This document shows, one piece after another, positions 3,801 to 64,000 of a DNA stretch of 64,000 bases (position 1 is its first letter; each line of letters opens with the position of its first letter). The position numbers and the translations under genes are program-made. The stretch spans positions 33,772,592 to 33,836,591 of the forward strand of contig CM067343.1 in assembly GCA_034190875.2 (NCBI GenBank). Direction: 5' to 3'. Source of the stretch: Urechis unicinctus (taxonomy: Eukaryota > Annelida > Polychaeta > Xenopneusta > Urechidae). The notes below the pieces were generated by a model. The model saw nothing but the letters and a program-made list of their open reading frames with translations, did no database searches and was not told the DNA's origin.

Positions 3801-4328
3801 CGAGCAGAGAAATACTTCGTTAATACCTATAAATACATTCAAGCTGCCTGTTATGTCATTCCCACTCATTCTTAACACTGTCCAAGAATATTCTAAGGGA
3901 AAGACGTGGAAAAATTAGGGCTGATTTCACTTGTAGGATATAAATCGCATTTTGTGTTTGGCTCAGATTCGTTTTGTGTTTTTATGTAGCTTGGGGTCCG
4001 CTAACTATATCATTACTTCACAGAAATTCATATGCAAAAAAGAGGGAATTTCCGGTTGATTTCTTTGAATGGTGTTATCTGGCCAGTTGAAGTGTGGTTA
4101 GCCAAGGTGAGGCAAACTTATCATTCTTATAACGAGTTAAATAAGGACATATTAAGCACTATGCTGATTTGGAGGTTCGCTAAAGGGGCAACCAATATTC
4201 TTAACCCTGCCTTGTATCGATGCTGCCTGGCAGCTTTATGTAACTTTTAACAACCAGTTAAGGCCGGGTAGCATCGAGGTTCGATGATCAGCGCTGTAAT
4301 GAATGGACGTTGATGGTAAGCTCCGATA
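818..4328. other. Gene-poor stretch, nothing recognised
   Basis: About 3.5 kb of mixed-composition DNA. Open frames are all below about 95 codons, none resembles a family I know, and none sits in a convincing exon context. I see no repeats, tRNA-like boxes or transposon ends here. Unrecognised exons of flanking genes cannot be excluded. Confidence 0.4.
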
Positions 4329-13664: not shown

Positions 13665-15485
13665 ATGGTTTACACGGAAAGCTCGAGCAAGGGGCGCAGT
13701 GAAAGTGAAGCTAAAGATGAGACCAACTTGGGTCTCGGCAATGTGCTTGATATGCGCATGTATTGTCGGTGAGATATTATATCACTTATTTCATTATCGA
13801 TTTGGAATGAAAGGTTATGTAAATTCTTAACACCATGTAATATTTGTGTTTGCCTTTTTGGCGCAGATTGACAATCTAACTATATGGGATCAAGTTGGCT
13901 ATTAAATCCTGTAGTAATATAAATACCACTTAAAAACAAACATCTATGATTAATTAGTATATATATGCCGTTATTTCCTTCTGGATAAATATGATAATGG
14001 TTCATAATTAATTGATGTATTTTCTGCAGACGCATGGAAACGCAAATGATGAAGGCAGTTGCGGAGCTACCACCCACCAGCTTCCAAGAAATGGGCTCAA
14101 GTAACAACCAATGGGCTGCTGGGTATGGACCAGACAACGGCGATATGGCTGTTCAAAACTCGCCCTATTCTCGCCTTTACCAACTCGACGCCATCTCAAA
14201 GCCCATGCAGAGAAGAACGAAACGCATGGTGCCTTGCGAGCTAAAAGACAAGCGATATTGGGAAAAACGGAAACGCAATAACGACGCCGCGAGAAGGTCG
14301 CGCGAAAACAAGCGCCAAGTGGAGCTTGATATCCGCTCTCGAGTGATGGCATTGGAAGACGAAAACAGCCTGATGCGGAAAGAAAACGCCATGTTGAAAT
14401 CCAAATTGGGATTATCCCCTGATTTGCGCTACTTATCGCAGGATGACGCAGGTGAGCTGCTGGCGGTCGGTCCCATGCCCCCTCCTCCGACACCGTTTGA
14501 TTTCACAAGATATGGCACCAGCTCTGAAACAGATTCCAGCTGCGGGCACTACCAGCCAGAAACGACCACTCCAAACAGCAACAGCACACAAGCCAGCAGC
14601 GCGACCGATAGCAGCAGCATGTGTGATGATACTCAAGATGAATGCATGCCGATGAAGAAGCGACGTCGTCCCAAACACGAGGCTAGTCTGGTTGAATCCA
14701 ACGCGATGACCATAGGTAGCAGTAGCAATAACAGCTCCCCTACATCTTCTGTCAACATCTACCCCCATTTTCCGGCCGCACAACCCGCCTTCGCCCCCTC
14801 GCTGGCTTCTGAAGGTCAAGGAAGTTCGAACGGCTCGTCGATTCAACACGAGGATTCAAATCAGCGATCGTCCAATCCAATGGACGAAGCTGACCGCAGA
14901 GAAGGCTTACCGATGTTGAAGCATAATTACCACCGCAGCTTACCCGCGATGTCAGCGTTCTCACAAGCTACACCACGGAAAGACTCCTTTTTGCCTGCTG
15001 CGTACTACAACGCTGACGACAAGTCTATCCCGAACTCATTTACACACACATTCTCGTCTCATAATGGGCACGGTGTCACGAACTCAATGGATTCAGAAAA
15101 GGGACCAGCTAATTCTCCTAATGAAGTCTCCCATCAGTCCCTTGTAGCACATACCTCCATATCCCCCTATCCCTTTTTATCGTCATCCAACATCCCGTCG
15201 ACTACATCCGTTTCACCCAGCTCGGCTTCGTCCAACATGTCCTCCTCTGAGTCGGCCACAGGTAACTCATCCAATGCATTCTTTCCCGGGAATTCTCCGA
15301 CCGCGGGACTTCGTGGTGATGGGAATGGCAACAATATCTCCAGCCCTACAGGGAATCTCTCCATTAAATGCGATTCTGAAACCAGGAGTGAAAATGATAT
15401 TTTCCGTTCACATCTGTTACAACTCACAGAGGAAGTTGCCAGAATGCGGAACTATGTTCTTCAAGGTAATACGCCCAATAAATGA
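13665..15485 (+). CDS. NFIL3/vrille-like bZIP transcription factor, copy 2 (intact)
   Basis: Two-exon gene, joined from exon 1 13,665-13,768 and exon 2 14,030-15,485, giving 519 residues. The start is chosen for its perfect CACCATGG context and because the phase fits exactly: exon 1 ends in the first two bases of an Arg codon at TCG|GTGAGA, and exon 2 continues it after TTTCTGCAG. Residues about 105-163 are the bZIP: a preceding LKDKRYWEKR, the basic region with N-x-A-A-x-R-S-R (NNDAARRSRE), then a leucine zipper. The KD-x-YW lead-in and NN-AA-RSR pattern are typical of the PAR/NFIL3/vrille/CES-2 group, nuclear DNA-binding dimers acting in circadian and developmental control. The rest is Ser/Asn/Pro-rich low-complexity sequence with a basic patch KKRRRPKHE and a predicted C-terminal helix (HLLQLTEEVARMRNYVLQ). 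I cannot say which family member it is; an initiation at the exon 2 Met (14,034) is an alternative. Confidence 0.88.
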
Positions 15486-31862: not shown

Positions 31863-33509
31863 TCAACAGCGATCAAATTGGAGATCAGATTGCTTGGCGT
31901 GGATTTTCTGAGATATCGATTTCACGTCGTTAGATATAGGATAAATTGTCTTACTGATTAAATTGTACAATAGGTCTACGATTTCGAGGAGAAGAACGGC
32001 TGTGATGCCGGCGTAGAGGTTAAGACAACCTCCAAGACGCGATAACAGTGTGGATAACGTCAAAGCGATCTGATCATCGAGCACTATCATAGATGTGCCT
32101 ACTGACAAAAGTTTAAATTGGAGGAAATTCTTATCTATAAGATTAAGGCTTTCAGTTTTAATCAAAGCTTCTGTGGTGTTACCACTGGCGGCAAGTGAAT
32201 CTATTCCCTTATATTCTTGAAAATAGTGTGCGAATTCCGTCTCTTTGATAAAGCTGTTGTAGAATGATAGATGAGCATTAGCGTTCGGCCAGCGTGTTTG
32301 AGAAATGACGTTCTGAAGGCTCATTTCAACACACTCTTCTGTGCATTTCCTGAAACATGCCCGCTGAGAGATCAGGACTCTACGCGAGGAACATTGCAGT
32401 TCTCGTGCCACAATATTCAGATCATCAAAAAGTTTACCACAGAAATGAAGGTTTGACATCAGACCTGAAGTGGGCAGCACATGGTGGATAGGATTCAAGC
32501 AGGCACATGACGTCACCGACTCGTCCTGCATGCATGTACGAATGCAACTATTAACAGAGTATGCAAGAGTTCCATTGACAAAATCTTTCATTCCTTCCAC
32601 ACCCGTTTGACACTGGCCATAAGGCTCAGGGAGGCGCGATCGTAATTGTGGAATAGTGCGGATCGTGGTTTCGAATCCGGGCGCCAGATGTATTTCCTCG
32701 TTTATATTGGGCAACTGACCAGGGAGAGAGATGGTGAGGAGAGCCCCTGTCTCTGCGAGACCCGTATCTCTCCATACCCGAGGAACTTCTGTCTGCACGT
32801 TGTCTAAATATAGAATACCAGTCATGATATATGGCGCATACCCAAGTTCATCTAGTAGAGTCGAATTCACTTCCATGACGTAGCAATTGTAATATTCAGG
32901 CGTCGTGAATGTTCTCACATTGGCAATATCTAAGCATGGTACATTTTTAGTGCCGCCCTCATAAACAACTCTGTACTCACATTTCAGAAGGAACTGTTTG
33001 TATTCGTGGCCTATTAGTTGCAGGTGATTGAGATCGAATAGGCTGTAATAGCCATGTTTGCTTTTCAAGTAGTCGAAGACAGTGTCAATCCCGTCTGCTT
33101 GTGTGGTTGAATTGGACTCAACAATGTCGGCTTGGATAGTTTCAACGCGATTCAGGTGTTCCTCATACGTCATCAAGCCGAACTGGTGCAAGTCGTTGAG
33201 GCTGGACAAAGGCTTAGCATTGCAGAGAGTAACCGCGAAGAATGGTGGAATATTGTACTCGGCTATATCATCAACGCTCAGCAGGTTCACTTCTTTTGCT
33301 TGAGTGACCACTTGGTATTCCAAGTAGGCCTTCACATGTACACCAGCTTGATACAGCCCCGTAGCGAGTAGACACAGGAAGCCAATGAACCAGAGGCATC
33401 GCAGAAATATTCCTTTAGATTTAATCATTCGAGGAATTCCCTTTATGGAGGTCACCTCTAGGAATTTTCCCAATTCCTGCTTTATAGGTTCATCAGAAGT
33501 GCTTTCCAT
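31863..33509 (-). CDS. DEG/ENaC-type ion channel, copy 1 (intact)
   Basis: Single-exon gene of 548 residues for a degenerin/epithelial sodium channel family subunit, a plasma-membrane cation channel working as a trimer. The start is the Met before ESTSDEP, because the frame upstream differs between copies. Visible parts: cytoplasmic N-terminus with TSIKGIPR (residues 21-27), TM1 about 37-57, FFAVTLCN at 90-97 (family FPAVTxCN), a large extracellular region with N-glycosylation sites, and the cysteine-rich segment CIRTCMQDESVTSCAC ... FCGKL ... CFRKCTEEC. TM2 is about 495-517 with GGCLNLYAGITAVLLLEIVD. Oddities: the conserved His of the N-terminal HG gating motif is Lys, and the selectivity GxS reads G-I-T. 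It is one of five family copies in tandem, all on the minus strand. The ligand cannot be told. Confidence 0.9.
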   Translation of the reverse strand: MESTSDEPIKQELGKFLEVTSIKGIPRMIKSKGIFLRCLWFIGFLCLLATGLYQAGVHVKAYLEYQVVTQAKEVNLLSVDDIAEYNIPPFFAVTLCNAKPLSSLNDLHQFGLMTYEEHLNRVETIQADIVESNSTTQADGIDTVFDYLKSKHGYYSLFDLNHLQLIGHEYKQFLLKCEYRVVYEGGTKNVPCLDIANVRTFTTPEYYNCYVMEVNSTLLDELGYAPYIMTGILYLDNVQTEVPRVWRDTGLAETGALLTISLPGQLPNINEEIHLAPGFETTIRTIPQLRSRLPEPYGQCQTGVEGMKDFVNGTLAYSVNSCIRTCMQDESVTSCACLNPIHHVLPTSGLMSNLHFCGKLFDDLNIVARELQCSSRRVLISQRACFRKCTEECVEMSLQNVISQTRWPNANAHLSFYNSFIKETEFAHYFQEYKGIDSLAASGNTTEALIKTESLNLIDKNFLQFKLLSVGTSMIVLDDQIALTLSTLLSRLGGCLNLYAGITAVLLLEIVDLLYNLISKTIYPISNDVKSISQKIHAKQSDLQFDRC

Positions 33510-34129
33510 TTCGCTGAAGCAGCAAATGAACGCCGAATTTGTTTCACCACAGGCTATTATCAACCAGATTGCTATTGAGCCAAATAAACTTTTGAATAAC
33601 AGGAGTAGTTTTGAATCCCGAAAGAATCTTCCTGCATGCGAATTTCACTGACCAACGAGCGGGCGTTTGATGTTGCACGACCAATGGTATTCTACATCAA
33701 CAAATAAAAAAGGGCTTCGAGTGGTAGCATTATGTGTTGGTGTGTAAATATTGGTTTGTTTTATTTTTTCTTACTAACTTTGACTGAAAGCCCCCAAATG
33801 ATATCAGAAGGAGATATCAATATGAAAAGCCGGATTTATCTAAACAAATGATCAAATATATGCGAGAAGCACACAATTATGAACAACAGATACATAAAGT
33901 GATTAATTAAATACAACCAACAGCGATCAAGTGAGCAACTGCCCACACGGATCGTACATCATAGAAACACTCGCCGAGTTTTGATTGGATTGCTATATAC
34001 ATCTAAGTTAACAACAAACATGACAATGATAATGGTGTCAGAAGACAGAACAGACTTTATTGTTCAAGTGATGTAAATAGGAGCACCTTAATGCAGGACT
34101 TATGGATTTGTGAAGGAAGCTGTCTGTGG

Positions 34130-34985
34130 TTAACTGTAGTTTACTGATAAGAGGTGTGTTGGGTTAGGGGTTGCATATTAACATATTATCTACCACAGGT
34201 TTATTCTGTGCATAGAAATGGATATTGCATTTGAATAATTGTTGGATGAAGGGGCTAATGAGGTGCATGTTGATTGGATTTTTAGTTGAATACTTATCAA
34301 TGATAGCTACCACAGCCTGGTTGTCGCAATGAAAGAGTATGTTTCAGTTAACCATTTTGGGTATTAACATGCTGAATAACACAAATATTGGATAGAGTTC
34401 ATAGGTAATTGTTTTCATTTAGCTTGAATCCATTGGGAACCGTAAGTGGCTCCAAAAGCTATGCTCGATACATCGCTGAATAGAGGTAGATTATTGGAGG
34501 TTGCGGTACCTAATGAGGGTTGTGCTATGTAATGCTTCAGGATTGTAGCCAGATATATAAGCCCTGTCTTGCTTTATGTGTTTCAGAGATGAAATGGTTT
34601 GTGTTGGTAATGCCAATAGATAAATCATACAAACGTCACAAGATAGCTCTGCCTAGGCGATCGACAGAATTTGCAAACTGTAACATGTCTATGACAAATT
34701 GCATCTCTCGCAGTGCGGTTTTTTCTCTCCTGGGCCATGCTTTGATATATTTTCTGTGTGTATGTTTGTTATTTGTCTAAAGGGAGATTAACTGACACGT
34801 GTTATGAGTCAAGTTGTATACCAAGAAAGGTGAATTGTGCGGCGGGGCCTTATGTGTTGTCCGAAGCCAGGGTTTTACAAGTGGGATCGCATAGTTCAAC
34901 ATCGATGCTGAGCTGCTTTTGGAATCGTTGTTGAGTTAGAGCCACAAAAAGCAAATGATCGAATAATTTTACAATATTGAGCACA
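34130..34985 (-). mobile_element. DIRS-like retroelement RT/RNase H relic, block 1
   Basis: Minus-strand frames give, in order, LFVALTQQRFQKQL (after a lost YLDD), an RT segment ending in FTFLGIQLDS, REMQFVIDMLQFANSVDRLG (thumb-like RELQ...GRL...RVVRPGR), RLYDLSIGITNTNH, then RNase H marks LFSDVSSIAFGATYGSQWIQ (D-A-S-G-x-GFGA-x-F) and FHCDNQAVVAIIDK. This order and spelling match tyrosine-recombinase (DIRS/Ngaro) retroelements. Stops and frameshifts are many. The same relic occurs in blocks 2 and 3, so it was there before the channel unit duplicated. Confidence 0.75.
34348..34351. other. Empty target site TTAA (block 1)
   Basis: In GTTTCAGTTAACCATTTTGG this TTAA is the unoccupied counterpart of the site that carries the 3.8 kb insertion in block 3. 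It shows the ancestral state directly. Confidence 0.85.
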
Positions 34986-37961: not shown

Positions 37962-39608
37962 TCAACAGCGATCAGATAGGTGATCAGATTGCTTGACGTG
38001 GATTTTCTTAGATCTCGATTTCACGTCGTTAGATATAGGATAAATGGTCTTACTGATTAAATTGTACAATAGGTCTACGATTTCGAGGAGAAGAACAGCT
38101 GTGATACCGGCGTAGAGGTTAAGACAACCTCCAAGACGCGATAACAGTGTGGATAACGTCACAGCGATCTGATCATCGAGCACTATCATAGATGTGCCTA
38201 CTGACAAAAGTTTAAATTGGAGGAAATTCTTATCTATAAGATTAAGGCTTTCGATTTTAATCAAAGCTTCTGTGGTGTTACCACTGGCGGCAAGTGAATC
38301 TATTCCCTTATATTCTTGAAAATAGTGTGCGAATTCCGTGTCTTTGATAAAGCTGTTGTAGAATGATAGATGAGCATTAGCGTTCGGCCAGCGTGTTTGA
38401 GAAATGACGTTCTGAAGGCTCATTTCAACACACTCTTCTGTGCATTTCCTGAAACATGCCCGCTGAGAGATCAGGACTCTACGCGAGGAACATTGCAGTT
38501 CTCGTGCCACAATATTCAGATCATCAAAAAGTTTACCACAGAAATGAAGGTTTGACATCAGACCTGAAGTGGGCAGCACATGGTAGATAGGATTCATGCA
38601 GGCACATGACGTCACCGACTCGTCCTGCATGCATGTACGAATGCAACTGTCAACAGAGTATGCAAGAGTTCCATTGACAAAATCCTTCATTCCTTCCAGA
38701 CCCGTTTGACACTGGCCATAAGGCTCAGGGAGGCGCGATCGTAATTGTGGAATAGTGCGGATCGTAGTTTCGAATCCGGGCGCCAGATGTATTTCCTCGT
38801 TTATATTGGGCAACTGACCAGGGAGAGAGATGGTGAGGAGAGCCCCTGTCTCTGCGAGACCCGTATCTCTCCATACCCGAGGAACTTCTGTATGCACGTT
38901 GTCTAAATATAGAATACCAGTCATGATATATGGCGCATACCCAAGTTCATCTAGTAGAGTCGAATTCACTTCCATGACGTAGCAATTGTAATATTCAGGC
39001 GTCGTGAATGTTCTCACATTGGCAATATCTAAGCATGGTACATTTTTAGTGCCTCCCTCATAAACAACTCTGTACTCACATTTCAGAAGGAACTGTTTGT
39101 ATTCGTGGCCTATTAGTTGCAGGTGATTGAGATCGAATTGGCTGTAATAGCCATGTTTGCTTTTCAAGTAGTCGAAGACAGTGTCAAGCCCGTCTGCTTG
39201 TGTGGTTGAATTGGACTCAACAATGTCGGCTTGGATAGTTTCAACGCGATTCAGGTGTTCCTCATACGTCATCAAGCCGAACTGGTGCATGTCGTTGAGG
39301 CTGGACAAAGGCTTAGCATTGCAGAGAGTAACCGCGAAGAATGGTGGAATATTGTACTCGGCTATATCATCAACGCTCAGCAGGTTCACTTCTTTTGCTT
39401 GGGTGACCACTTGGTATTCCAAGTAGGTCTTCACATGTACACCAGCTTGATACAGCCCCGTAGCGAGTAGACACAGGAAGCCAATGAACCAGAGGCATCG
39501 CAGAAATATTCCTTTAGATTTTATCATTCGAGGAATTCCCTTTATAGAGGTCACCTCTAGGAATTTTCCCAATTCCTGCTTTACAGGTTCATCAGAAGTG
39601 CTTTCCAT
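37962..39608 (-). CDS. DEG/ENaC-type ion channel, copy 2 (intact)
   Basis: Intact single-exon gene of 548 residues, very close to copy 1, with differences scattered (for example EPVKQ for EPIKQ, VKTYLE for VKAYLE, CACMNPIYH for CACLNPIHH, and a changed last 18 residues). The motif set is the same: KG in place of HG at 23-24, TM1 about 37-57, FFAVTLCN, cysteine-rich domain, TM2 with G-I-T. The frame stays open 78 codons further upstream to 39,842. The upstream part is not conserved in copy 1, so the Met at 39,608 is preferred. That extension would add sequence without channel features. Confidence 0.9.
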   Translation of the reverse strand: MESTSDEPVKQELGKFLEVTSIKGIPRMIKSKGIFLRCLWFIGFLCLLATGLYQAGVHVKTYLEYQVVTQAKEVNLLSVDDIAEYNIPPFFAVTLCNAKPLSSLNDMHQFGLMTYEEHLNRVETIQADIVESNSTTQADGLDTVFDYLKSKHGYYSQFDLNHLQLIGHEYKQFLLKCEYRVVYEGGTKNVPCLDIANVRTFTTPEYYNCYVMEVNSTLLDELGYAPYIMTGILYLDNVHTEVPRVWRDTGLAETGALLTISLPGQLPNINEEIHLAPGFETTIRTIPQLRSRLPEPYGQCQTGLEGMKDFVNGTLAYSVDSCIRTCMQDESVTSCACMNPIYHVLPTSGLMSNLHFCGKLFDDLNIVARELQCSSRRVLISQRACFRKCTEECVEMSLQNVISQTRWPNANAHLSFYNSFIKDTEFAHYFQEYKGIDSLAASGNTTEALIKIESLNLIDKNFLQFKLLSVGTSMIVLDDQIAVTLSTLLSRLGGCLNLYAGITAVLLLEIVDLLYNLISKTIYPISNDVKSRSKKIHVKQSDHLSDRC

Positions 39609-39766
39609 TTCGCTGAAGCAGCAAATGAACGGCGAATTTGTTTCACCACAGCCTATTATCAACCAGATTGCTATTGAGCAAAATAAATAGTTTTGAATCC
39701 CGAAAGAATCTTCTTGCATGCGAATTTCACTGACCAACGAGCGGGCGTTTGATGTTGCACGACCGA

Positions 39767-40332
39767 TGAGCTTTGGAGGAGACTGGCGCAGCAGCACCCA
39801 TGGATGGCCTGTCCAACCAGGCGGCGCCACGATATATTTCATGAGGTCTCACATGCTGGGGTAAATTGCCACAGCGAAGTCTATATTTCAACTTTATCTT
39901 TGGTTTTCTGAGCAGAGGTAGAAGGGAGTGGAGGTGTGGAGTGGGGCGACGTTAGCTGTGCGGTGCGTTATGGGCGGTGAATGGGCTAGTGTTATGTAGC
40001 AGTACGGGGTGGGGTCCCGCAGTCGACTTTCAAAGCGCTACATAATTGTTGAGTTGCCCCAATGCTTTTATTTATCACATCAACAGAACGTCTGCAGTAT
40101 AAAACGTCTTATTCTGAGTCGAGTGGCGATCTATAGTATGGAAATCCATGTCACAATACAAGCAATGTGAACAAGATAAGAAAGATGTGAGGCAGCGCAC
40201 CCATACATTTTATGTAACACAGCAATATATTTCATAGATTTTTAGAGAAAATTTACATATGACTATTTCTTCCTGCTATCAAATATTGCATTGGTTCACC
40301 TTGTTAGGATCAACGATGTGGTTGCTGGTATT
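39767..40332. other. Segment upstream of copy 2, shared with copy 4 only
   Basis: About 570 bp immediately upstream of copy 2 that matches 56,800-57,480 upstream of copy 4 (both contain GGCGCCAC, then GGGGTG-rich DNA and the CAGCAATATATTTCATAG block). Copies 1 and 3 lack it: there CGACCAATGGTATTCTAC joins directly. Either a deletion in the 1/3 type or an insertion in the 2/4 type. Confidence 0.7.
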
Positions 40333-40829: not shown

Positions 40830-41760
40830 TAACTGTAGTTTACTGATAAGAGGTGTGTTGGGTTAGGGGCTGCAAGGGGCTGCATCCCAAAACGTCGTAA
40901 GAGGCTGGGTTCCATCTGCAGGCGAGACATATCGTCACCTAACTACCTACCACAGGTTTATTCTGTGCATAGAAATGGATATTGCATTTGAATAATTGTT
41001 GGATGAAGGGGCTAATGTGGTGCATGTTGATTGGATTTTTAGTCGAATACTAATCAATGATAGCTACCACAGCCTGGTTGTCGCAATGAAAGAGTATGTT
41101 TCAGTTAACCATTTTGGGTATTAACATGCTGAATAACACAAATATTGGATAGAGTTCATAGGTAACTGTGTTCATTTAGCTTGAATCCATTGGGAACCGT
41201 AAGTGGCTCCAAAAGCTATGCTCGATACATCACTTAATAGAGGTAGATTATTGGAGGTTGCGGTACCTAATGAGGGTTGTGCTATGTAATGCTTCAGGAT
41301 TGTAGCCAGATATATAACCCATGTCTTGCTTTATGTGTTTCAGAGATGAAATGGTTTGTGTTGGTAATGCCAATAGATAAATCATACAAACGTCACAAGA
41401 TAGCTCTGCCTAGGCGATCGAAAAAATTTGCAAACTGTAACATGTCTATGACAAATTGCATCTCTCGCAGTGTTTTTTTTTCTCTCCTGGACTGTGCTTT
41501 TATATATTTTCTGTGTGTATGTTTGTCATTTGTCTAAAGGGAGATTATCTGACACGTGTTATGAGTCAAGTTGTATACCAAGAAAGGTGAATTTTGCGGC
41601 GGGGCCTTATGTGTTGTCCGAAGCCAGGGTTTTACAAGTGGGATCGCATAGTTCAACATCGATGCTGAGCTGCTTTTGGAATTGTCGTTGAGTTAGAGCC
41701 ACAAAAAGGAAATGATCGAATAATTTTACAATATTGAGCACACCATATATATGTTTTGAT
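40830..41760 (-). mobile_element. DIRS-like relic, block 2
   Basis: Second copy of the decayed DIRS-type RT/RNase H sequence with the same marks as in block 1. It keeps about 60 bp at the RNase H end that block 1 lost and that carries the 'DxxSRLQ' ending typical of the domain. Confidence 0.7.
41105..41108. other. Empty target site TTAA (block 2)
   Basis: GTTTCAGTTAACCATTTTGG, the second natural empty site matching the occupied site at 47,473-51,287. Confidence 0.85.
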
Positions 41761-44934: not shown

Positions 44935-46575
44935 TCAACAGCGATCAGATTGGTGATCGGATTGCTTGACGTGGATTTTCTTAGATCTCGATTTCACGTC
45001 GTTAGATATAGGATAAATTGTCTTACTGATTAAATTGTACAATAGGTCTACGATTTCGAGGAGAAGAACGGCTGTGATGCCGGCGTAGAGGTTAAGACAA
45101 CCTCCAAGACGCGATAACAGTGTGGATAACGTCACAGCGATCTGATCATCGAGCACTATCACAGATGTGACCACTGACAAAAGTTTAAATTGGAGGAAAT
45201 TCTTATCTATAAGATTAAGGCTTTCGATTTTAATCAAAGCTTCTGTGGTGTTACCACTGGCGGCAAGTGAATCTATTCCCTTATATTCTTGAAAATAGTG
45301 TGCGAATTCCGTGTCTTTGATAAAGCTGTGTTGTAGAATGATAGATGAGCATTAGCGTTCGGCCAGCGTGTTTGAGAAATGACGTTCTGAAGGCTCATTT
45401 CAACACACTCTTCTGTGCATTTCCTGAAACATGCCCGCTGAGAGATCAGGACTCTACGCGAGGAACATTGCAGTTCTCGTGCCACAATATTCAGATCATC
45501 AAAAAGTTTACCACAGAAATGAAGGTTTGACATCAGACCTGAAGTGGGCAGCACATGGTAGATAGGATTCATGCAGGCACATGACGTCACCGACTCGTCC
45601 TGCATGCATGTACGAATGCAACTGTCAACAGAGTATGCAAGAGTTCCATTGACAAAATCCGTCATTCCTTCCAGACCCGTTTGACACTGGCCATAAGGCT
45701 CAGGTAGGCGCGATCGTAATTGTGGAATAGTGCGGATCGTAGTTTCGAATCCGGGCGCCAGATGTATTTCCTCGTTTATATTGGGCAACTGACCAGGGAG
45801 AGAGATGGTGAGGAGAGCCCCTGTCTCTGCGAGACCCGTATCTCTCCATACCCGAGGAACTTCTGTATGCACGTTGTCTAAATATAGAATACCAGTCATG
45901 ATATATGGCGCATACCCAAGTTCATCTAGTAGAGTCGAATTCACTTCCATGACGTAGCAATTGTAATATTCAGGCGTCGTGAATGTTCTCACATTGGCAA
46001 TATCTAAGCATGGTACATTTTTAGTGCCTCCCTCATAAACAACTCTGTACTCACATTTCAGAAGGAACTGTTTGTATTCGTGGCCTATTAAGGGCAGGTG
46101 ATTGAGATCGAATTGGCTGTAATAGCCATGTTTGCTTTTCAAGTATTCGAAGACAGTGTCAATCCCGTCTGCTTGTGTGGTTGAATTGGACTCAACAATG
46201 TCGGCTTGGATAGTTTCAACGCGATTCAGGTGTTCCTCATACGTCATCAAGCCGAACTGGTGCAAGTCTGTGAGGCTGGACAAAGGCTTAGCATTGCAGA
46301 GAGTAACCGCGAAGAATGGTGGAATATTGTATATCGTCAACGCTCAGCAGGTTCACTTCTTTTGCTTGGGTGACCACTTGGTATTCCAAGTAGGTCTTCA
46401 CATGTACACCAGCTTGATACAGCCCCGTAGCGAGTAGACACAGGAAGCCAATGAACCAGAGGCATCGCAGAAATATTCCTTTAGATTTTATCATTCGAGG
46501 AATTCCATTTATGGAGGTCACCTCTAGGAATTTTCCCAATTCCTGCTTTACAGGTTCATCAGAAGTGCTTTCCAT
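44935..46575 (-). pseudogene. DEG/ENaC-type channel, copy 3 (two frameshifts)
   Basis: Full-length copy of the channel gene with the start at 46,575 and stop at 44,935, broken twice. An 8-base deletion near 46,331 (GTATATCGTCAACG versus GTACTCGGCTATATCATCAA) falls just before the FFAVTLCN motif, and a 2-base insertion near 45,329 (GCTGTGTTGTAG versus GCTGTTGTAG) falls after the cysteine-rich domain. The long middle frame and the C-terminal frame remain open, with near-identical residues to copy 2, so the damage is recent or an error. N-terminal motif here is INGIPR (HG to NG). Confidence 0.85.
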
Positions 46576-47192
46576 TTCGCTGAAGCAGCAAATGAACGGC
46601 GAATTTGTTTCACCACAGGCTATTATACACCAGATTGCTATTGAGCCAAATAAACTTTTGAATAACAGGAGTAGTTTTGAATCCCGAAAGAATCTTCCTG
46701 CATGCGAATTTCACTGACCAACGAGCGGGCGTTTGATGTTGCACGACCAATGGTATTCTACATCAACAAATAAAAAAGGGTTTCGAGTGGTAGCATTATG
46801 TGTTGGTGTGTAAATATTGGTTTGTTTTATTTTTTCTTACTAACTTTGACTGAAAGCCCCCAAATGATATCAGAAGGAGATATCAATATGAAAAGCCGGA
46901 TTTATCTAAACAAATGATCAAATATATGCGAGCACACAATTATGAACAACAGATACATAAAGTGATTAATTAAATACAACCAACAGCGATCAAGTGAGCA
47001 ACTGCCCACACGGATCGTACATCATAGAAACACTCGCCGAGTTTTGATTGGATTGCTATATACATCTAAGTTAACAACAAACATGACAATGATAATGGTG
47101 TCAGAAGACAGAACAGACTTTATTGTTCAAGTGATGTAAATAGGAGCACCTTAATGCAGGACTTATGGATTTGTGAAGGAAGCTATCTGTGG

Positions 47193-47472
47193 TTAACTGT
47201 AGTTTACTGATAAGAGGTGTGTTGGGTTAGGGGTTGCAAGGGGCTGCATCCCATAACGTCGTGAGAGGCTGGGTTCAACCTGCAGGCGAGACATATCGTC
47301 ACCTAACATATTATCTACCACAGGTTTATTCTGTGCATAGAAATGGATATTGCATTTGAATAATTGTTGGATGAAGGGGCTAATGAGGTGCATGTTGATT
47401 GGATTTTTAGTTGAATACTTATCAATGATAGCTACCACAGCCTGGTTGTCGCAATGAAAGAGTATGTTTCAA
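47193..47472 (-). mobile_element. DIRS-like relic, block 3, RNase H part
   Basis: The RNase H end of the relic, with FHCDNQAVV-type start near 47,460, AIIDKYSTKNP, LFKCNIHFYAQNKPVVDN and DDMSRLQ. It is cut at its upstream side by the TTAA insertion; its other part continues at 51,288. Confidence 0.75.
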
Positions 47473-47647
47473 TTAAAGTGCAAGTAATGGGTAAAATATG
47501 AATTTTCGGGATCTTATAGAACGCGATTTTCTGATCAATAATTCGCAGTTCTTTTTTCGATCCGACGCGTAGTAAACAAGAAATAAGCAAAAACAAACAA
47601 CATATTCCGGAACTTCCCGACCACACACCGAAGATGAACGAAGGCGC

Positions 47648-47666
47648 TGTGACGTCATATGTCACC
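47648..47666. repeat. Subterminal inverted repeat, left
   Basis: TGTGACGTCATATGTCACC, 19 bases, an exact reverse complement of 51,074-51,092. Contains a CRE palindrome TGACGTCA. Confidence 0.85.
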
Positions 47667-48667
47667 AGAAGATCTATGTTACCACGGACGCCGTTTCTAT
47701 TCGCGAACTAGCTGTCGTACTAATTTATCGCTATTTACAGAAACTCATAAGCGTTTTTGTATCCATGGTTTCTTGAGAATCTGTAAGTATACTCATCCTT
47801 ACAATTCCCATATGAAAGTCGAATTAGAATTCATTAGTTTTGTTTCCGTACTGATTTTGAAAACAGAATTTGCACTTGCCCGTTGACAAAATTGACATGG
47901 CCGGTAGTGATCAGTGTGGGGCGTCTCAAGTTTTATAAGGCTGTTTCACAGATAACATATAGATTTGTCTCGTCAGGCTGCAATATGTAGATGTATGCTA
48001 GCCTGACAGTAGCTTACACTTGTCCTAAACAATCCTCGGACGATGCCCAGTGCTCAGTGAGTCAGTTCTGGCCTACTGTCAAATTTGCTTCATATAACTT
48101 TACCCTTATGTCTTCCAGTCTGTATCATCATTGTGCGAATATGTGAGTACCAGTACTGCAATAATTCGCATCTAGGGCCTCAAACGAAGCATGTCATTTC
48201 TTTTGGATGACCAAGGACTCCAGTTGGACTGCATCATCACCGATAGGCACACGAGTATCAATAAGTACATCCGTGATGACCAATGAACCAGGTGCACTTG
48301 CTGAAATGTATGACTACCCTGACAAGGAGGAGGCTGAGAGGCAGCATATGGAGAGGTTTCTTCTTTAGATGAGTCATGTAGTAAGGTATCTAAAGGTGAT
48401 GATGAATGATGGTGGTGGTAGTGATGGGGTAGGGGAGGGGTGGTGATGGAGTTGATGGTGGTGGCCTAAGCATTATATTGGTGGTTGGCCGATTGATATT
48501 TGCTTGTTTACAAGTAATATCTAAGCTCTGTTTATTTTTCAGCTTTGGTTTCAGCTAAGTCAAGCTTGTAACATTTAATTTTACCTATCTGTTAACAAGT
48601 GCACAAGGACATAACTATTTCTTATCATCATACTTACAAAATAAATGGTAAATATTGGGGTTAAAAT

Positions 48668-48906
48668 TCACTTTGAACATCAAAGGTCATTTCAAACTGG
48701 TGGTGTAAGATGACGAACAAACATTGGAGTTTAAGATCCTATCGCCCAAATGGCACCACCGTGCATAGCACACAGTGGGATTTGAACTTGCCACATTTGG
48801 GAAACTAGACAAACACCCACCCTGCTAGACCACAGTTGTGGACCTATCATCTTAAACATCATTGGTGAGGTAACCGCCACAATATGACCTCTGATGTTGA
48901 AAGTGA
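48668..48906. mobile_element. Nested hairpin element with terminal inverted repeats
   Basis: Ends 48,668-48,690 and 48,884-48,906 are 23-base inverted repeats with two mismatches (starting TCACTTTGAACATC / TCACTTTCAACATC). A further inverted match GTTTAAGAT lies inside (about 48,726-48,745 versus 48,843-48,866). The centre holds a tRNA-like promoter. It looks like a ~240 bp MITE or a foldback SINE nested in the larger transposon. Confidence 0.6.
48760..48845 (-). ncRNA. tRNA-like pol III promoter (SINE-like core)
   Basis: On the minus strand an A box TGGTCTAGCAGG (48,821-48,832) and B box AGTTCAAATCC (48,778-48,788) lie 32 bp apart, the layout of a tRNA gene or tRNA-derived SINE. The folded acceptor stem of a real tRNA is not evident, so a SINE head or tRNA pseudogene is more likely. 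Confidence 0.5.
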
Positions 48907-49494
48907 TGTTAAACAACAATATTAACCATTTTTATTTTCAAATCATCCAGCATGTGTATGGCTTTATGACTTAATTTGAATGTTAAATGGGTCTGAGGTA
49001 AGCTAAGCTGTGGTGAAACTCAAACACTGTTATATGATTCCTCTTTGTGGCTTGCTGAGAATTAATTTTGTAAATATATATGTTGGACTGGTGTATATAT
49101 TTTGCCATTTCTATTGAATAAGACATTGTTGGTATTTGTGAGCAGAATTGCATAAGCATTATTTGTATAATGTGCCCGCAAAATTTAATCATGATGATTG
49201 ATGTGCAATGGCACAGGATATATAAAATATCCTGCAAAAATTATTAAACGACTGTTAACATACTGTTATTTGAGTGATAAAATATCTTTAGTACGAGATA
49301 CAGGATACAGGAACAAGATGCCCTGCAGGTATGTCATGATTTTGGAATTGATGCTTCCTATCATTTTATGCATATGGTATAATAAATTAGGTGGACTGGC
49401 CTTAACTGAATTTTGTTGCTGGTTGTCATCAGCATGTAGTATCATCATAGCTGAATGTAAATAACAGAATAAGACACATAATGCTTTTTGTCCC

Positions 49495-50303
49495 TTTATT
49501 ATTGTAATGCTGGCAGTTTGAAACCAACATAAACTGATTCACCCTTGGGAAATCATCTCTAATTTTAAGTACAGAACAAGCTGGGAGTGGCACTCTATGA
49601 TGTCTGCCTAGATTACCCCATCACCACTGTACCAACTGCCGATATGCAGTGAATCGGAATAACCTGCAATAAAAAGAGTACATGAATATTTTTCATCAGT
49701 TATCATCTGAACCAGACCATTTTTAAGTATATTCACTCATGCTGAGTAGTAACTTTCTTCTTGTACCTCTGGATATAAGCACTATATGCTATTTCTAGTG
49801 TCGAGGGACGCAGGAACCCTGAGACAAATCCTGGGTGTGCTGTAATACAGGACGCACCCATAGATTACTTTCTCGAGAACTTGTGGAATTTCCTGGCAGC
49901 ATTTACTCTCTGCTACTGTAATCATTGGCCCACATGAGCACCTAGTACAGAACATAATTACAATGAATAACTAGCTTTTCAGCAAACAAAAAATTGACAT
50001 AAAACATGAATAAGAAGATGACTTGAAGCAAGACTTAAGGACAACTGTAAAGTAAAGAGAAAAATATCTGCAAAGATTGTTTGGACTGAAATGTGCCAAT
50101 ACCAAGTGCTGTTACCCAGTCGGCTCAAGTCCTCTTCTTTTTGAGGAGAATTTGCAGGCCTTGTCTTAGCTGGAGGTTCAAATCTGCATGCCTGTATGCC
50201 CCCCTTAGGTTCCTAGTTCCTCTTCTTGGTGAGACAAACACTCACTGCTGTAATACAGCTCATCGCTTCCGGAGTTGTCTGTATATGAGGAAGATGAGGA
50301 CAT
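49495..50303 (-). pseudogene. P2X7 receptor C-terminal-like domain gene (P2RX7_C), broken
   Basis: Minus-strand remains of at least three exons. Exon 1 (ATG at 50,303) codes an acidic Ser-rich start MSSSSSYTDNSGSDELYY, a stop, then in another frame EEDLSRLGNSTW. Exon 2 (about 49,930-49,740) gives CTRCSCGPMITVAESKCCQE, then after a frameshift SCITAHPGFVSGFLRPSTLE and IAYSAYIQRY. The last exon, after TTTTATTGCAG at 49,665, gives LFRFTAYRQLVQW, a TGA, then HRVPLPACSVLKIRDDFP. This follows the human P2X7 cytoplasmic 'ballast' order: CQCG-x-C, CC, CIT, AYR, LPSC, IRKEFP. In P2X7 that domain binds zinc and guanine nucleotide. No channel part is present; free-standing versions of this domain are common in aquatic invertebrates. 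At least two breaks make it a pseudogene. Confidence 0.78.
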
Positions 50304-51073
50304 TTTGCTCCCTTGACATATAATAAAAGCAAAGTATAATGGCAGTTATGCACTGTACTAGGTGTAAGTAATAAATATAAAACTAATAAGGACAAGATAA
50401 AGTATGTATTATTGAGGTTGGTACCCCAGGTAATTCAAAGAACTAGTGTAAGGCCTTGAACTCTTTAAAGGCCTATGATATATGTAAGTCATAAACATGT
50501 CACTGAACTTGGATCCTGTACAATTCACTGGAGAGGTATATTCAATTGTAACAGCTTATCCCTGATAGGTCTCGGTTCCCAAAACCAGTGCCAATATTTA
50601 AAATAAAATTGATATTTTCTGTTGTCAAGGAGAATATAAATTATTGAAATTTTATTCAATTTATAGCAAAAGCGAAATATCGAGTGAAATCCCCATTTAA
50701 TGTAGTATCAGTTTTCATTTGCGATTAAATCAAATAAAAGCACAAGAAAATATATTCTCCGTAACAGGACAGGCAAATGGTGAATCAATCATTGATAACC
50801 ATTAAACGGGCCTGAAATCGAGGTGCAGACCTCTGTTCCAGTACTGCCTGTATTATCGCTCGGTCCCCTTTGGTTGACGTTTTCACCCAACATAATAGAA
50901 GTTTATCACAATTTAATGTATTCTAGGCGAACAAGTACTCCATGCCACATTAAATGATGTGATTCGTTGCGGTATATGATGTACATGATGACGGTATAAA
51001 ATACGATTATGCTCACACCTACCACAGTTCCCATGTAAACAAACGAGGAAATGACTGCGCTATCCGGCTGGAC

Positions 51074-51092
51074 GGTGACATATGACGTCACA
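51074..51092. repeat. Subterminal inverted repeat, right
   Basis: GGTGACATATGACGTCACA, exact reverse complement of 47,648-47,666. It lies about 770 bp upstream of the P2X7-like gene start and contains a CRE, so it may have served as promoter. Confidence 0.85.
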
Positions 51093-51287
51093 AACTCAGG
51101 AGCCAATGGCCGTCGTTTTTTTGCGCATATGCCAAAACGGTCCGAAAAATCGATGGAAATATTGAAAAAAAACACACAAAACGACATCTATGGACGAAAA
51201 TATTGTCGGAAACGTCTTTCACAGGCTGAAATACATCTAATTCCACTTTGATTAGGGATTCGAAAATAGACGTTACTTGCACTTTAA

Positions 51288-51905
51288 CCATTTTGGGTAT
51301 TAACATGCTGAATAACACAAATATTGGATAGAGTTCATAGGTAATTGTTTTCATTTAGCTTGAATCCATTGGGAACCGTAAGTGGCTCCAAAAGCTATGC
51401 TCGATACATCGCTGAATAGAGGAAGATTATTGGAGGTTGCGGTACCTAATGAGGGTTGTGCTATGTAATGCTTCAGGATTGTAGCCAGATATATAAGCCC
51501 TGTCTTGCTTTATGTGTTTCAGAGATGAAATGGTTTGTGTTGGTAATGCCAATAGATAAATCATACAAACGTCACAAGATAGCTCTGCCTAGGCGATCGA
51601 CAGAATTTGCAGTGCGGTTTTTTCTCTCCTGGGCCATGCTTTGATATATTTTCTGTGTGTATGTTTGTTATTTGTCTAAAGGGAGATTAACTGACACGTG
51701 TTATGAGTCAAGTTGTATACCAAGAAAGGTGAATTTTGCGGCGGGGCCTTGTGTGTTGTCCGAAGCCAGGGTTTTACAAGTGGGATCGCATAGTTCAACA
51801 TCGATGCTGAGCTGCTTTTGGAATCGTTGTTGAGTTAGAGCCACAAAAAGCAAATGACCGAATAATTTTACAATATTGAGCACACCATATATATGTTTTG
51901 ATATC
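51288..51905 (-). mobile_element. DIRS-like relic, block 3, RT part
   Basis: The reverse-transcriptase side of the relic whose RNase H side is at 47,193-47,472. Visible marks: LLFVALTQQRFQKQL, PAAKFTFLGIQLDS. Compared with block 1 it has a deletion of about 40 bp near 51,610 (GAATTTGCAGTGCGG). Confidence 0.72.
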
Positions 51906-55024: not shown

Positions 55025-56672
55025 TCAACAGCGATCAGATTGGTGATCGGATTGCTTGACGTGGATTTTCTTAGATCTCGATTTCACGTCGTTAGATATA
55101 GGATAAATTGTCTTACTGATTAAATTGTACAATAGGTCTACGATTTCGAGGAGAAGAACGGCTGTGATGCCGGCGTAGAGGTTAAGACAACCTCCAAGAC
55201 GCGATAACAGTGTGGATAACGTCACAGCGATCTGATCATCGAGCACTATCACAGATGTGACCACTGACAAAAGTTTAAATTGGAGGAAATTCTTATCTAT
55301 AAGATTAAGGCTTTCGATTTTAATCAAAGCTTCTGTGGTGTTACCACTGGCGGCAAGTGAATCTATTCCCTTATATTCTTGAAAATAGTGTGCGAATTCC
55401 GTGTCTTTGATAAAGCTGTTGTAGAATGATAGATGAGCATTAGCGTTCGGCCAGCGTGTTTGAGAAATGACGTTCTGAAGGCTCATTTCAACACACTCTT
55501 CTGTGCATTTCCTGAAACATGCCCGCTGAGAGATCAGGACTCTACGCGAGGAACATTGCAGTTCTCGTGCCACAATATTCAGATCATCAAAAAGTTTACC
55601 ACAGAAATGAAGGTTTGACATCAGACCTGAAGTGGGCAGCACATGGTAGATAGGATTCATGCAGGCACATGACGTCACCGACTCGTCCTGCATGCATGTA
55701 CGAATGCAACTGTCAACAGAGTATGCAAGAGTTCCATTGACAAAATCTTTCATTCCTTCCAGACACCCGTTGACACTGGCCATAAGGCTCAGGGAGGCGC
55801 GATCGTAATTGTGGAATAGTGCGGATCGTAGTTTCGAATCCGGGCGCCAGATGTATTTCCTCGTTTATATTGGGCAACTGACCAGGGAGAGAGATGGTGA
55901 GGAGAGCCCCTGTCTCTGCGAGACCCGTATCTCTCCATACCCGAGGAACTTCTGTCTGCACGTTGTCTAAATATAGAATACCAGTCATGATATATGGCGC
56001 ATACCCAAGTTCATCTAGTAGAGTCGAATTCACTTCCAGTACGTAGCAATTGTAATATTCAGGCGTCGTGAATGTTCTCACATTGGCAATATCTAAGCAT
56101 GGTACATTTTTAGTGCCTCCCTCATAAACAACTCTGTACTCACATTTCAGAAGGAACTGTTTGTATTCGTGGCCTATTAGTTGCAGGTGATTGAGATCGA
56201 ATTGGCTGTAATAGCCATGTTTGCTTTTCAAGAAGGCGAAGACAGTGTCAAGCCCGTCTGCTTGTGTGGTTGAAATGGACTCAACAATGTCGGCTTGGAT
56301 AGTTTCAACGCGATTCAGGTGTTCCTCATACGTCATCAAGCCGAACTGGTGCAAGTCGTTGAGGCTGGACAAAGGTTTAGCATTGCAGAGAGTAACCGCG
56401 AAGAATGGTGGAATATTGTACTCGGCTATATCATCAACGCTCAGCAGGTTCACTTCTTTTGCTTGAGTGACCACTTGGTATTCCAAGTAGGCCTTCACAT
56501 GTACACCAGCTTGATACAGCCCAATAGCGAGTAGACACAGGAAGCCAATGAACCAGAGACAGCGCAGGAATATACCTTTAGATTTTATCATTCGAGGAAT
56601 TCCCTTTATGGAGGTCACCTCTAGGAATTTTCCTAACTCGTCCTTTACATGTCCATTAGAAGTGCTTTCCAT
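55025..56672 (-). pseudogene. DEG/ENaC-type channel, copy 4 (one frameshift)
   Basis: Full-length copy with start 56,672 and stop 55,025. The frame breaks near 55,762, where AGACACCCGTTGACACTGG replaces AGACCCGTTTGACACTGG (two bases gained, one lost), just before the cysteine-rich domain. Both halves are otherwise open and nearly identical to copies 2 and 3. The N-terminus is the most diverged (MESTSNGHVKDELG), while KGIPR, TM1, FFAVTLCN and G-I-T in TM2 are kept. Its 3' flank is almost the same as that of copy 3. Confidence 0.85.
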
Positions 56673-56734
56673 TTCGCTGAAGCAGCGAATGAATGGTTAG
56701 ATAAAAACCAACCAGATTGCTACGAGGCCCAGTA

Positions 56735-62265: not shown

Positions 62266-64000
62266 TTATTTCAACAACAAGGTGAGTCTATCTGGTGGTT
62301 TAATATTCCTTGAAGATCTTCTGGGGCTTGGTTTAGGTGGTGACTCTTGCTGAATTGGTTAAGTTTCTGGTGCTGCAGACATAGGTGGTAATGTATCATG
62401 TTCGGATGAGTTGTTTTCAGCAGGCAGTGTTACAGAAGATTTGTTTTCGACACTAGTAAGTGTTATAGATTGAGGGACAGGTAATATATCCTCACTGTTA
62501 AAGTTGGTATCTAGGCTGTCAATATGATTATTGGTGTCCTCTGCTAGTCTTGTGCGAATGTGGTCCATGTGGCGGCGTAGTACGCGACCATCTGAGATAC
62601 GCACTAAAGCTGATACTGGTCCTGTAACCTCCTGAATTACACCTGGCAACCATTTTTGTCTGGTTCCAAAATTAGTGGTGAATACAGTAGTACCTACAGA
62701 CAACATTCTATCCTTTGCCTTTCGGTCATGGTACTGTTTTTGCTTAGATTGTGATTGCAGAACTGTAGTTGATGCATCTGGTATCAGGATATCCAGACGA
62801 GAACGAGGTCGACGGTTCAACAGGAGTTCGGCTGGAGATTTTCCTGTTGTTGAATGTTGAGTTATCCTGTAGCGTGACAGAAAACGGTAGAGTTTACTTT
62901 CAAGAGATCCACCTTCCATTTTCTGGAGTCCATGTTTGATGACTTGAACGGCACGTTCTGCTAAGCCATTCGACGCAGCGTGATAAGGGCTACTTGTGGA
63001 TACCGTTAGACTTGGTAAACATACGAAACTCTTCACTGGTGAAACATGTACCATTATCACTGACTAATATCTTTGGTAACCCATGAGTGGCAAAAGTTTG
63101 CATCAAACGTTCAATAGTGACTGCCGATGTAGATGAAGAAACTACAAGTGCATCAATCCATTTTGAGTGCGAGTCAACTATCACAAGGATCATTTTCCCA
63201 CAAACAGGTCCGGCGTAATCCACGTGTAGACGTTCCCAGGGCTGTTTTGGCCATTCCCATGGATGTAACGGTGCAGTACGAGGCAGATTTCTGTTCTGTT
63301 GACAGATTGAACACTCTTGAACAAAAGCAGCAATGTCAAAATCCAAACTTGGCCACCAGACATAGCTTCGAGCTAGTCTTTTCATTCTCACAATACCAGG
63401 ATGTGTTTCATGGATTTCCTTGAGTACTTCCTTCTGACCTTGTTTGGGAACCACCACACGGCTTCCCCAAAGAAGACAGTTATTATCGACACTGAGTTCG
63501 TGACGACGTGTAAAGAAGGGTTGCATTGCAGGTTCTACAACTGAATCCTCTGGCCAACCATACAGAACATGGCGAAGTACACGTGAAATAACAGGGTCCC
63601 GTGATGACCATACTTTCACTTGTTTTGCATCCACACACCGTAGGTTATTGATTACATCACCAGGTACTGGCACTGAGTTTGGTCTGTCAAGTAGTGTCAA
63701 TCTGCTCATAGCATCTGCGTTAGCATTTGCTAAACCTGGTTGATACTTAATCTGATAGTTGTATGCACTTAGAGTGAGACTCCATCGTAGAACACGTGGT
63801 GACACCATCAATGGAATCATTCGACATTCACTGAGTAGGCTTACAAGTGGTTTGTGATCTGTGTAGATAGTGCAGAAACGACCATAAATGTACTGATGAA
63901 ATTTCTTCACAGCGAAGATAACAGCCAGTGCCTCTTTGTCGAGTTGTGAGTAGTTAGTTTCTTCTGTAGCTAGGGTACGTGATGCAAAAGCGATGGGTCG
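62266..64000 (-). mobile_element. Ty3/gypsy retroelement pol (RNase H to integrase), broken
   Basis: Minus-strand pol running in from beyond the right edge. In order: FASRTL ... YSQLDKEALAVIFAVKKF and TDHKPL (end of RT/RNase H), DAMSRL, integrase zinc finger HETHPGIVRMK ... CSICQQN, catalytic core VDYAGPV and VSDNGTCFTSEEF, then SPYHAASNGLAERAVQ with the catalytic Glu, and a GPY/F-type end (KWLPGVIQEVTGP ... RRHMDHIR). An extra base near 62,992 (AAGTAGCCC) shifts the frame between the second Asp and the Glu, and an in-frame TAA at 62,359 precedes a remaining tail RRSSRNIKPPDRL up to the TAA at 62,266. So this copy cannot make an intact integrase. Recently active by its low decay. Confidence 0.9.

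What the first reader, a model, noticed from the sequence alone, without database searches (positions are those of the whole stretch)
47473..51287. TTAA-flanked transposon with a P2X7-C-like gene as cargo, with two natural empty sites
Seen: precise insertion into one of three homologous blocks, TTAA on both sides, inverted ends AGTGCAAGTAA, a second 19-base inverted match inside each end, and one intact TTAA at the two empty sites (34,348 and 41,105). Inside is a broken multi-exon gene for the P2X7 cytoplasmic cysteine domain without a channel. Known: TTAA targets are typical of piggyBac and Kolobok elements, and stand-alone P2X7-C-like genes are numerous in aquatic invertebrates. Inference: mobile-element carriage may explain that multiplicity, and this could be an undescribed cargo family.
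Basis: partly seen in the sequence, partly recalled or inferred. Interest (0 to 1): 0.88.

Follow-up and report, generated by a model that had tools for sequence, protein, structure and literature searches.

The report
Kolobok jumping gene, broken KolX passenger
The insert is a recently moved, transposase-less copy of a Kolobok jumping gene, and its P2X7-like gene is a broken copy of KolX, a protein Kolobok elements are already known to carry and the published source of part of the vertebrate P2X7 receptor.

Summary
In detail: 47,477-51,283 is a 3,807-bp DNA transposon between TTAA duplications, with 11-bp terminal and 19-bp subterminal inverted repeats and two natural empty sites. The genome holds 620 exact TTAA+end sites against 10 for the reversed control. 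All 20 copies aligned have TTAA on both sides; the window copy differs from the commonest base at 4 of 3,805 sites. The interpretation needs changing. Two longer relatives with the same ends (L033, L034) carry a THAP domain, DDE transposase exons and, tail to tail, a three-exon P2X7-C-like gene with an open 193-aa frame. The window element matches them in pieces and keeps two transposase scraps and a dead copy of that gene. TTAA targets, AG...CT ends, THAP, DDE, H2CH and this gene are published Kolobok traits; the gene is KolX, which Kojima and Bao (2022) identified as the P2X7 ballast domain and source of P2X7. So it is the family's own accessory gene, not an undescribed cargo. The element is an internally deleted member of a known kind, probably moved in trans, useful mainly because autonomous and deleted forms coexist.

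The parts
47473..47476 (.). left TTAA target-site duplication
47477..51283 (.). whole non-autonomous Kolobok-type element, 3,807 bp
   Evidence: single TTAA at the two paralogous empty sites; end-to-end relatives at other loci
47477..47487 (+). left terminal inverted repeat AGTGCAAGTAA
47477..48174 (+). left end shared with the autonomous relatives, up to a deletion inside their THAP exon
   Evidence: 92% identical to L034:49-737
47648..47666 (+). 19-bp subterminal inverted motif TGTGACGTCATATGTCACC; a transposase-binding site is inferred, not shown
   Evidence: exact at both ends of L033, L034, L035 and L036; exact at one end of L037, one mismatch at the other; not found in the fetched stretches of L038 and L039, which lack recognisable ends
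48174..48281 (+). transposase scrap around the second catalytic D (LDDQGLQLDCIITDRHTSINKYIRDD)
   Evidence: 98% identical to L034:2641-2748; 27-aa, 41% match to Dreissena P0006
48280..48373 (+). second transposase scrap, joined after a second internal deletion
   Evidence: 93% identical to L034:3681-3775
48850..50327 (-). KolX region kept from the autonomous element
   Evidence: 86% identical to L034:3846-5397
50103..50303 (-). KolX exon 1, degenerate; ends ...RLGNSTW at the splice donor
49737..49941 (-). KolX exon 2 with ballast cysteines; two bases short against the open frame in this copy and 13 others of 20
49498..49663 (-). KolX exon 3 (far end approximate), with an in-frame TGA shared by all 20 copies examined
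50789..51283 (+). right end shared with the autonomous relatives
   Evidence: 93% identical to L034:5380-5869
51074..51092 (-). 19-bp subterminal inverted motif, right copy
51273..51283 (-). right terminal inverted repeat
51284..51287 (.). right TTAA target-site duplication
34348..34351 (.). natural empty site (single TTAA) in a paralogous block
41105..41108 (.). natural empty site (single TTAA) in a paralogous block

Best explanation
The element is a young non-autonomous (internally deleted) member of a Kolobok DNA-transposon family. Autonomous-looking members of the same family in the same genome (5.8 and 6.2 kb) encode a THAP-DDE transposase and, convergent to it, KolX, a zinc-cysteine protein homologous to the P2X7 cytoplasmic ballast. 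Internal deletions removed most of the transposase from one lineage, whose KolX then decayed. That transposase-less lineage kept the ends and was amplified, by inference cut and pasted into TTAA by the transposase of the autonomous copies. Shown: same ends, piecewise identity with the longer copies, TTAA duplications, empty sites, KolX with an open frame beside the transposase there, dead KolX in all 20 non-autonomous copies aligned. Inferred: that the longer copies are active, the trans supply of transposase, the binding role of the 19-bp motif, and any job of KolX.
For: 620 exact end sites against 10 in the control. 20 of 20 aligned copies have TTAA on both sides; mean pairwise difference 0.6% with 137 private and 29 shared substitutions, so a recent star-like burst. 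L033/L034 have the same ends, the same 19-bp motif, THAP (E=4.1e-14), DDE exons aligning to animal proteins found with a second Kolobok-like transposase (D, D, DxxH, H2CH), and KolX with an open 193-aa frame. 10 copies of this transposase exon are 97-100% identical with no stop inside the best row. With the L030 transposase as query, 12 of 150 KolX rows lie within 10 kb of a transposase hit and all 12 are convergent, 0.23 expected by chance. Ends AG...CT, TTAA, THAP, DDE, H2CH and KolX are published for Kolobok.
Against: About 940 bp of the window element (48,374-48,849 and 50,328-50,788) have no match in L034, so L033/L034 are close relatives and not the direct parent. A tree placing the transposase in the Kol0 lineage was not made. 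No transposition was observed. The 20 copies came from the top of a search by end identity, which favours young ones. With the L034 transposase exon as query only 2 of 150 KolX rows had a hit within 12 kb, one convergent and one on the same strand. One of three KolX places fetched blindly, L031, showed no transposase match at E 1e-3 and no convincing ends.
Confidence: 0.96

Rival explanations
1. The transposon captured a host stand-alone P2X7-C-like gene as foreign cargo.
For: In the window copy alone no transposase gene is evident and the only gene-like part is P2X7-C-like.
Against: The gene sits with an open frame, convergent to the transposase, in longer relatives with the same ends, and beside a transposase in other Kolobok families of this genome (L029, L030, 12 of 12 near pairs convergent with the L030 query). 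The literature names it as Kolobok's own KolX.
Confidence: 0.03
2. A piggyBac-type element, the other TTAA superfamily; [quoted passage not shown]
For: TTAA duplication; published mention of KolX-like proteins in some piggyBac families.
Against: Ends are AG...CT, the Kolobok rule; piggyBac CCY-type ends are recalled knowledge. The L034 DDE exon gives a weak Mutator-like transposase match (E=0.0023, under the cut-off) and no piggyBac family; a THAP domain is present.
Confidence: 0.01
3. KolX is kept in the deleted family because the KolX region does something useful for the non-autonomous element (protein or cis signal), not as a mere leftover.
For: Deletions removed most of the transposase but kept almost the whole KolX region.
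Against: All 20 copies aligned share an in-frame TGA; exons are no better conserved than introns against L034 (exons 0.90-0.93, introns 0.92-0.96). Two of the 20 (L010, L021) have lost part of the region and still look young.
Confidence: 0.06

Closest known systems
Kolobok superfamily, Kol0 lineage (Kolobok-1_XT type), PMC9587614
   Same: TTAA duplications, RR/YY ends, DDE transposase plus a second protein KolX with the P2X7 ballast domain
   Different: The window copy has lost the transposase and its KolX is dead; whether this exact family is already named in a repeat library could not be checked; Kol0 placement by tree was not tested
Xenopus XKol elements and T2-MITEs, PMC6004289
   Same: THAP with an AVPTIF-type box, DDE, H2CH, AG ends, TTAA; non-autonomous families beside autonomous ones; one published end (AGAGCAAGTAAAGTCG, subfamily A6) resembles AGTGCAAGTAATGGG
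   Different: The window family's members are mostly 3.8 kb with a KolX fossil; that paper's main text does not hold the word KolX (0 occurrences)
KolobokP (long terminal direct repeats), PMC9587614
   Same: Kolobok superfamily
   Different: No long terminal direct repeats here (longest direct repeat reported 23 nt)
Stand-alone ZCD/ballast genes and nanor, PMC7016195
   Same: Same zinc-cysteine domain in a short protein without a channel
   Different: That paper treats them as ordinary animal genes (<10 per species) and its main text does not contain the string 'transpos'; here at least some are transposon genes and the number of matches is far higher
P2X7 receptor
   Same: C-terminal ballast domain (PDB 9e3q, E=2e-7 with the L034 KolX)
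   Different: No channel domain in the proteins scanned; the published direction is KolX to P2X7

Membership tests
Kolobok superfamily | 4-bp TTAA target-site duplication | tested here: met
   window copy with two empty sites; 20 of 20 aligned copies; L033, L034
Kolobok superfamily | termini 5'-RR ... YY-3' | tested here: met
   AG...CT in all 20 aligned copies; rule
[quoted passage not shown]
   met in relatives L033/L034 (GDGRCDSPGHSA, IITDRH, FDIWH; TSTLEAFHS in L033); the E residue was placed by eye; the window copy keeps only the second-D scrap
Kolobok superfamily | THAP domain with an AVPTIF-type box, and H2CH motif | tested here: met
   L034: PF05485 E=4.1e-14, AVPTIH read by eye; HIRNLH...CEH in L033 read by eye; definition; window copy lacks them
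Kol0 lineage | second gene KolX with the P2X7 ballast domain | tested here: met
   open 193-aa frame in L033 and L034, PF20478 E=1.3e-15; degenerate in the window
Kol0 lineage | transposase groups with Kol0 in a tree | not tested
   no labelled reference transposases were at hand
piggyBac superfamily | piggyBac DDE transposase domain | tested here: not met
   Pfam scan of two L034 transposase frames gives only a weak Mutator-like hit and a DnaJ hit, both under the cut-off
KolobokP | long terminal direct repeats of about 450 or 660 bp | tested here: not met
   longest direct repeat reported in 47,400-51,400 is 23 nt; lengths
P2X7 receptor gene | P2X channel domain | tested here: inconclusive
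   no channel family among the hits of the KolX pieces and proteins scanned; not every frame of the element was scanned

The most novel reading that the evidence does not exclude
KolX is a working second transposition protein of this family, supplied in trans with the THAP-DDE transposase to the deleted copies during the present burst. The coexistence of KolX-open autonomous copies and KolX-dead followers would then make its role, and the ancestral job of the P2X7 ballast, directly testable.
Probability: 0.35. Interest if true: 0.6.

Novelty: new member of a known kind. Interest (0 to 1): 0.33.

Why it matters
It removes a possible false discovery: P2X7-C-like genes in transposons are not unexplained cargo but KolX. 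It also gives a clear example of the published claim that the P2X7 ballast came from a transposon: one genome with KolX-carrying autonomous-looking copies, their deleted followers, natural empty sites, and many PF20478 matches (150 of 150 scored are over the cut-off, from 2,591 first-look candidates). Stand-alone 'P2X purinoceptor 7-like' gene models in invertebrate annotations should be checked for Kolobok transposases and TTAA ends before they are read as receptor or immune genes. Because longer and deleted forms coexist, the unknown job of KolX could be tested.

Tried and rejected
Host-gene capture and piggyBac membership were considered and rejected (see rivals). KolobokP was rejected because no long terminal direct repeats were found. 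Retention of KolX in the deleted family under selection was tested and found no support: exons no better conserved than introns, shared stop. Selection on KolX in older autonomous-type copies is undecided: against L034, L033 has 1 synonymous and 0 non-synonymous codon changes, L036 1 and 3 (with 28 gap columns in exon 2), L037 6 and 15 (1 gap column), L038 0 and 2 (1 gap column); the copies are few and partly decayed, so this gives no evidence of purifying selection. Adjacency of KolX hits with the L034 transposase exon gave 2 near pairs within 12 kb for 150 KolX rows, one convergent and one on the same strand; I think those two capped lists are dominated by different families. With the L030 transposase it gave 12 within 10 kb, all convergent. 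For one search I used 119 of 138 rows (extra exon rows of the same places dropped); for I used 93 of 134 rows (extra exon rows, and most of the weakest tail of about 24-27% identity, dropped). Of three KolX places fetched first, L029 and L030 have a transposase and L031 does not at E 1e-3. L027 was fetched but left out of the 20-copy alignment because it is a nested array; L001-L008 are short pieces of the same top hits and were not counted. Six single frames, among them four KolX fragments, found nothing in Pfam, and the window read-through found nothing in the PDB. Paper searches for a link. None of the 25 papers listed held the P2X term. One search found one paper with KolX and Kolobok, PMC9587614; one search found two with Kolobok and P2X7, the other being PMC9319628 with one mention of each, seen in the listing only.

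Full report
Observation. The insert is real and exact. The window has TTAA, then 3,807 bp starting AGTGCAAGTAA and ending with its reverse complement, then TTAA; a second 19-bp perfect inverted match lies about 170-190 bp inside each end. The two other homologous blocks hold a single TTAA at 34,348 and 41,105, and the flanks agree ungapped at 377 of 404 and 365 of 404 positions. Nothing else in the window resembles the element strongly (best E 0.017).

Family. Searching the window's own genome (1.19 Gb, 926 contigs) with the first 200 bases gave 651 first-look candidates, of which 40 were scored, all 99-100% identical. The exact 15-mer TTAAAGTGCAAGTAA occurs 317 + 303 times, against 1 + 9 for the reversed control. 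Of the first 100 places listed, 58 form 29 facing pairs; 19 of the 29 pairs are 3.7-3.86 kb apart. I fetched 20 regions: 19 hold an end-to-end copy, some with internal gaps or an insertion, and one (L027) is a nested array. Those 19 and the window copy all have TTAA on both sides (20 of 20). Mean pairwise difference is 0.6% with 137 private and 29 shared substitutions; the window copy differs from the commonest base at 4 of 3,805 sites. The sample favours young copies because it came from the top of an identity-ranked list.

The longer relatives. Three longer pairs and one of 4.0 kb were fetched. One long pair (L032) is a partial and a near-complete copy in tandem. The other two, L033 (6.2 kb) and L034 (5.8 kb), have the same ends and TTAA, and the window element matches L034 in pieces: element 1-698, 698-805, 804-897, 1374-2851 and 3313-3807. 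Between these pieces L034 holds what the window element lacks: a THAP domain (PF05485, E=4.1e-14) and DDE transposase exons. These align with uncharacterised proteins of Dreissena, Branchiostoma and a fish, which had been found by searching with the transposase of another locus, L030 (20 proteins). The first D (GDGRCDSPGHSA), second D (IITDRH), DxxH (FDIWH), H2CH (HIRNLH...CEH) and a likely E (TSTLEAFHS) are present; the last was placed by eye. The window's own relic IITDRHTSINKYIRDD is the second-D piece. In the genome, 10 copies of this transposase exon are 97-100% identical with no stop inside the best row; L034 and L033 are two of them, 8 of the 10 rows cover residues 1-209 of 291, and one (C102) has a stop in its other row. 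Older copies carry stops (1,336 first-look candidates, 134 scored).

The P2X7-like gene. On the opposite strand, tail to tail with the transposase, L033 and L034 have a three-exon gene with GT-AG introns and an open frame for an identical 193-aa protein. It matches Pfam P2RX7_C at E=1.3e-15 and the ballast of solved P2X7 structures at E=2e-7; the two best database relatives are from Lamellibrachia and Littorina (8 proteins). In the window family the gene is dead. All 20 copies share an in-frame TGA. The window copy and 13 others are also two bases short in exon 2; L010, L015, L020, L025 and L026 have the length of the open frame there, and so does L012 with different letters. Exons are not better conserved than introns (0.90-0.93 against 0.92-0.96). 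So the gene had decayed before the burst and rides along.

Generality in this genome. PF20478 gave 2,591 first-look candidates, 150 scored, all over the cut-off; the 14 control genomes had none. L029 is a second Kolobok family: near-identical ends AGRTGCATTTTTTGAAAAAA beside TTAA, 5.2 kb apart, with KolX convergent to a transposase. L030 has the same gene layout, its ends not found. L031, the third place fetched, has KolX exons but no transposase match at E 1e-3 and no convincing ends. With the L030 transposase as query, 12 of the 150 KolX rows (11 places) lie within 10 kb of a hit, all 12 convergent, with 0.23 expected if hits were spread evenly; 8 of the 15 best-scoring KolX hits are among them. 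With the L034 exon as query only 2 of 150 rows had a hit within 12 kb, one convergent and one not. The other matches were not examined; the lists are capped.

What is known. Kojima and Bao 2022 (PMC9587614; I saw passages, part 1 and section 16) state that Kolobok makes TTAA duplications with RR/YY ends, that Kol0 families encode a transposase and KolX, that KolX is the P2X7 cytoplasmic ballast, that it had not been pointed out before that such proteins are parts of Kolobok, and that P2X7 arose by fusion with KolX. The Xenopus study PMC6004289 (passages seen) lists THAP, DDE and H2CH as Kolobok features and shows an end, AGAGCAAGTAAAGTCG, like the one here. Rump et al. 2020 (PMC7016195; parts 2 and 3 of 6 and a word search) described stand-alone ballast genes, with no occurrence of 'transpos' in the main text.

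Mechanism and verdict. Shown: ends, duplications, empty sites, longer relatives with transposase, deletion structure, dead KolX. Inferred from the known biology of cut-and-paste transposons: the THAP-DDE transposase of the longer copies recognises the ends, perhaps with the 19-bp motif, and moves the deleted copies. The motif is exact at both ends of L033, L034, L035 and L036 and at one end of L037, with one mismatch at the other; L038 and L039, whose fetched stretches show no recognisable ends, lack it. The role of KolX is unknown. The finding is an ordinary but well-preserved non-autonomous Kolobok, a new member of a known kind; the idea of an undescribed cargo family is not supported.

Noticed in passing
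L027:243-4926: The element's first 1,437 bp occur head to tail three times; the second and third units start at the same internal TTAA (element 1432-1435): serial self-insertion into one internal target.
   Followed up: partly
L014:363-6379 and L032: Partial copy followed by a full or near-full copy in the same direction; in L014 the same flank sequence recurs before the second copy, so the flank was duplicated too.
   Followed up: no
31,863-33,644; 37,962-39,848; 44,935-46,710; 55,025-56,696: Tandem blocks of about 6-7 kb each with a DEG/ENaC channel gene (PF00858 in the four frames scanned); some copies are split by stops or frame changes.
   Followed up: partly
8,596-10,067 and 14,016-15,485: Duplicated bZIP gene (PF07716 in both); the second copy is one open frame of 489 aa, the first is split.
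   Followed up: no
47,193-47,468 (-): Reading frame resembling the RNase H part of a DIRS-type retroelement by recalled motif (no Pfam hit), so the Kolobok probably landed in an older retroelement relic inside the block.
   Followed up: no
62,359-63,063 (-): 234-aa frame resembling the integrase tail of a retroelement by recalled motif; no Pfam hit.
   Followed up: no
48,374-48,849 and 50,328-50,788: About 940 bp of the window element without a match in L034; origin unknown.
   Followed up: no
L030:2983-3300 (+): Cysteine-rich, CXC-like frame upstream of KolX in another Kolobok family; no Pfam hit.
   Followed up: no
35.5 kb, 42.3 kb and 52.4 kb: Long arrays of a short ATGTATGT-type repeat in each block, differing in length between blocks.
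   Followed up: no
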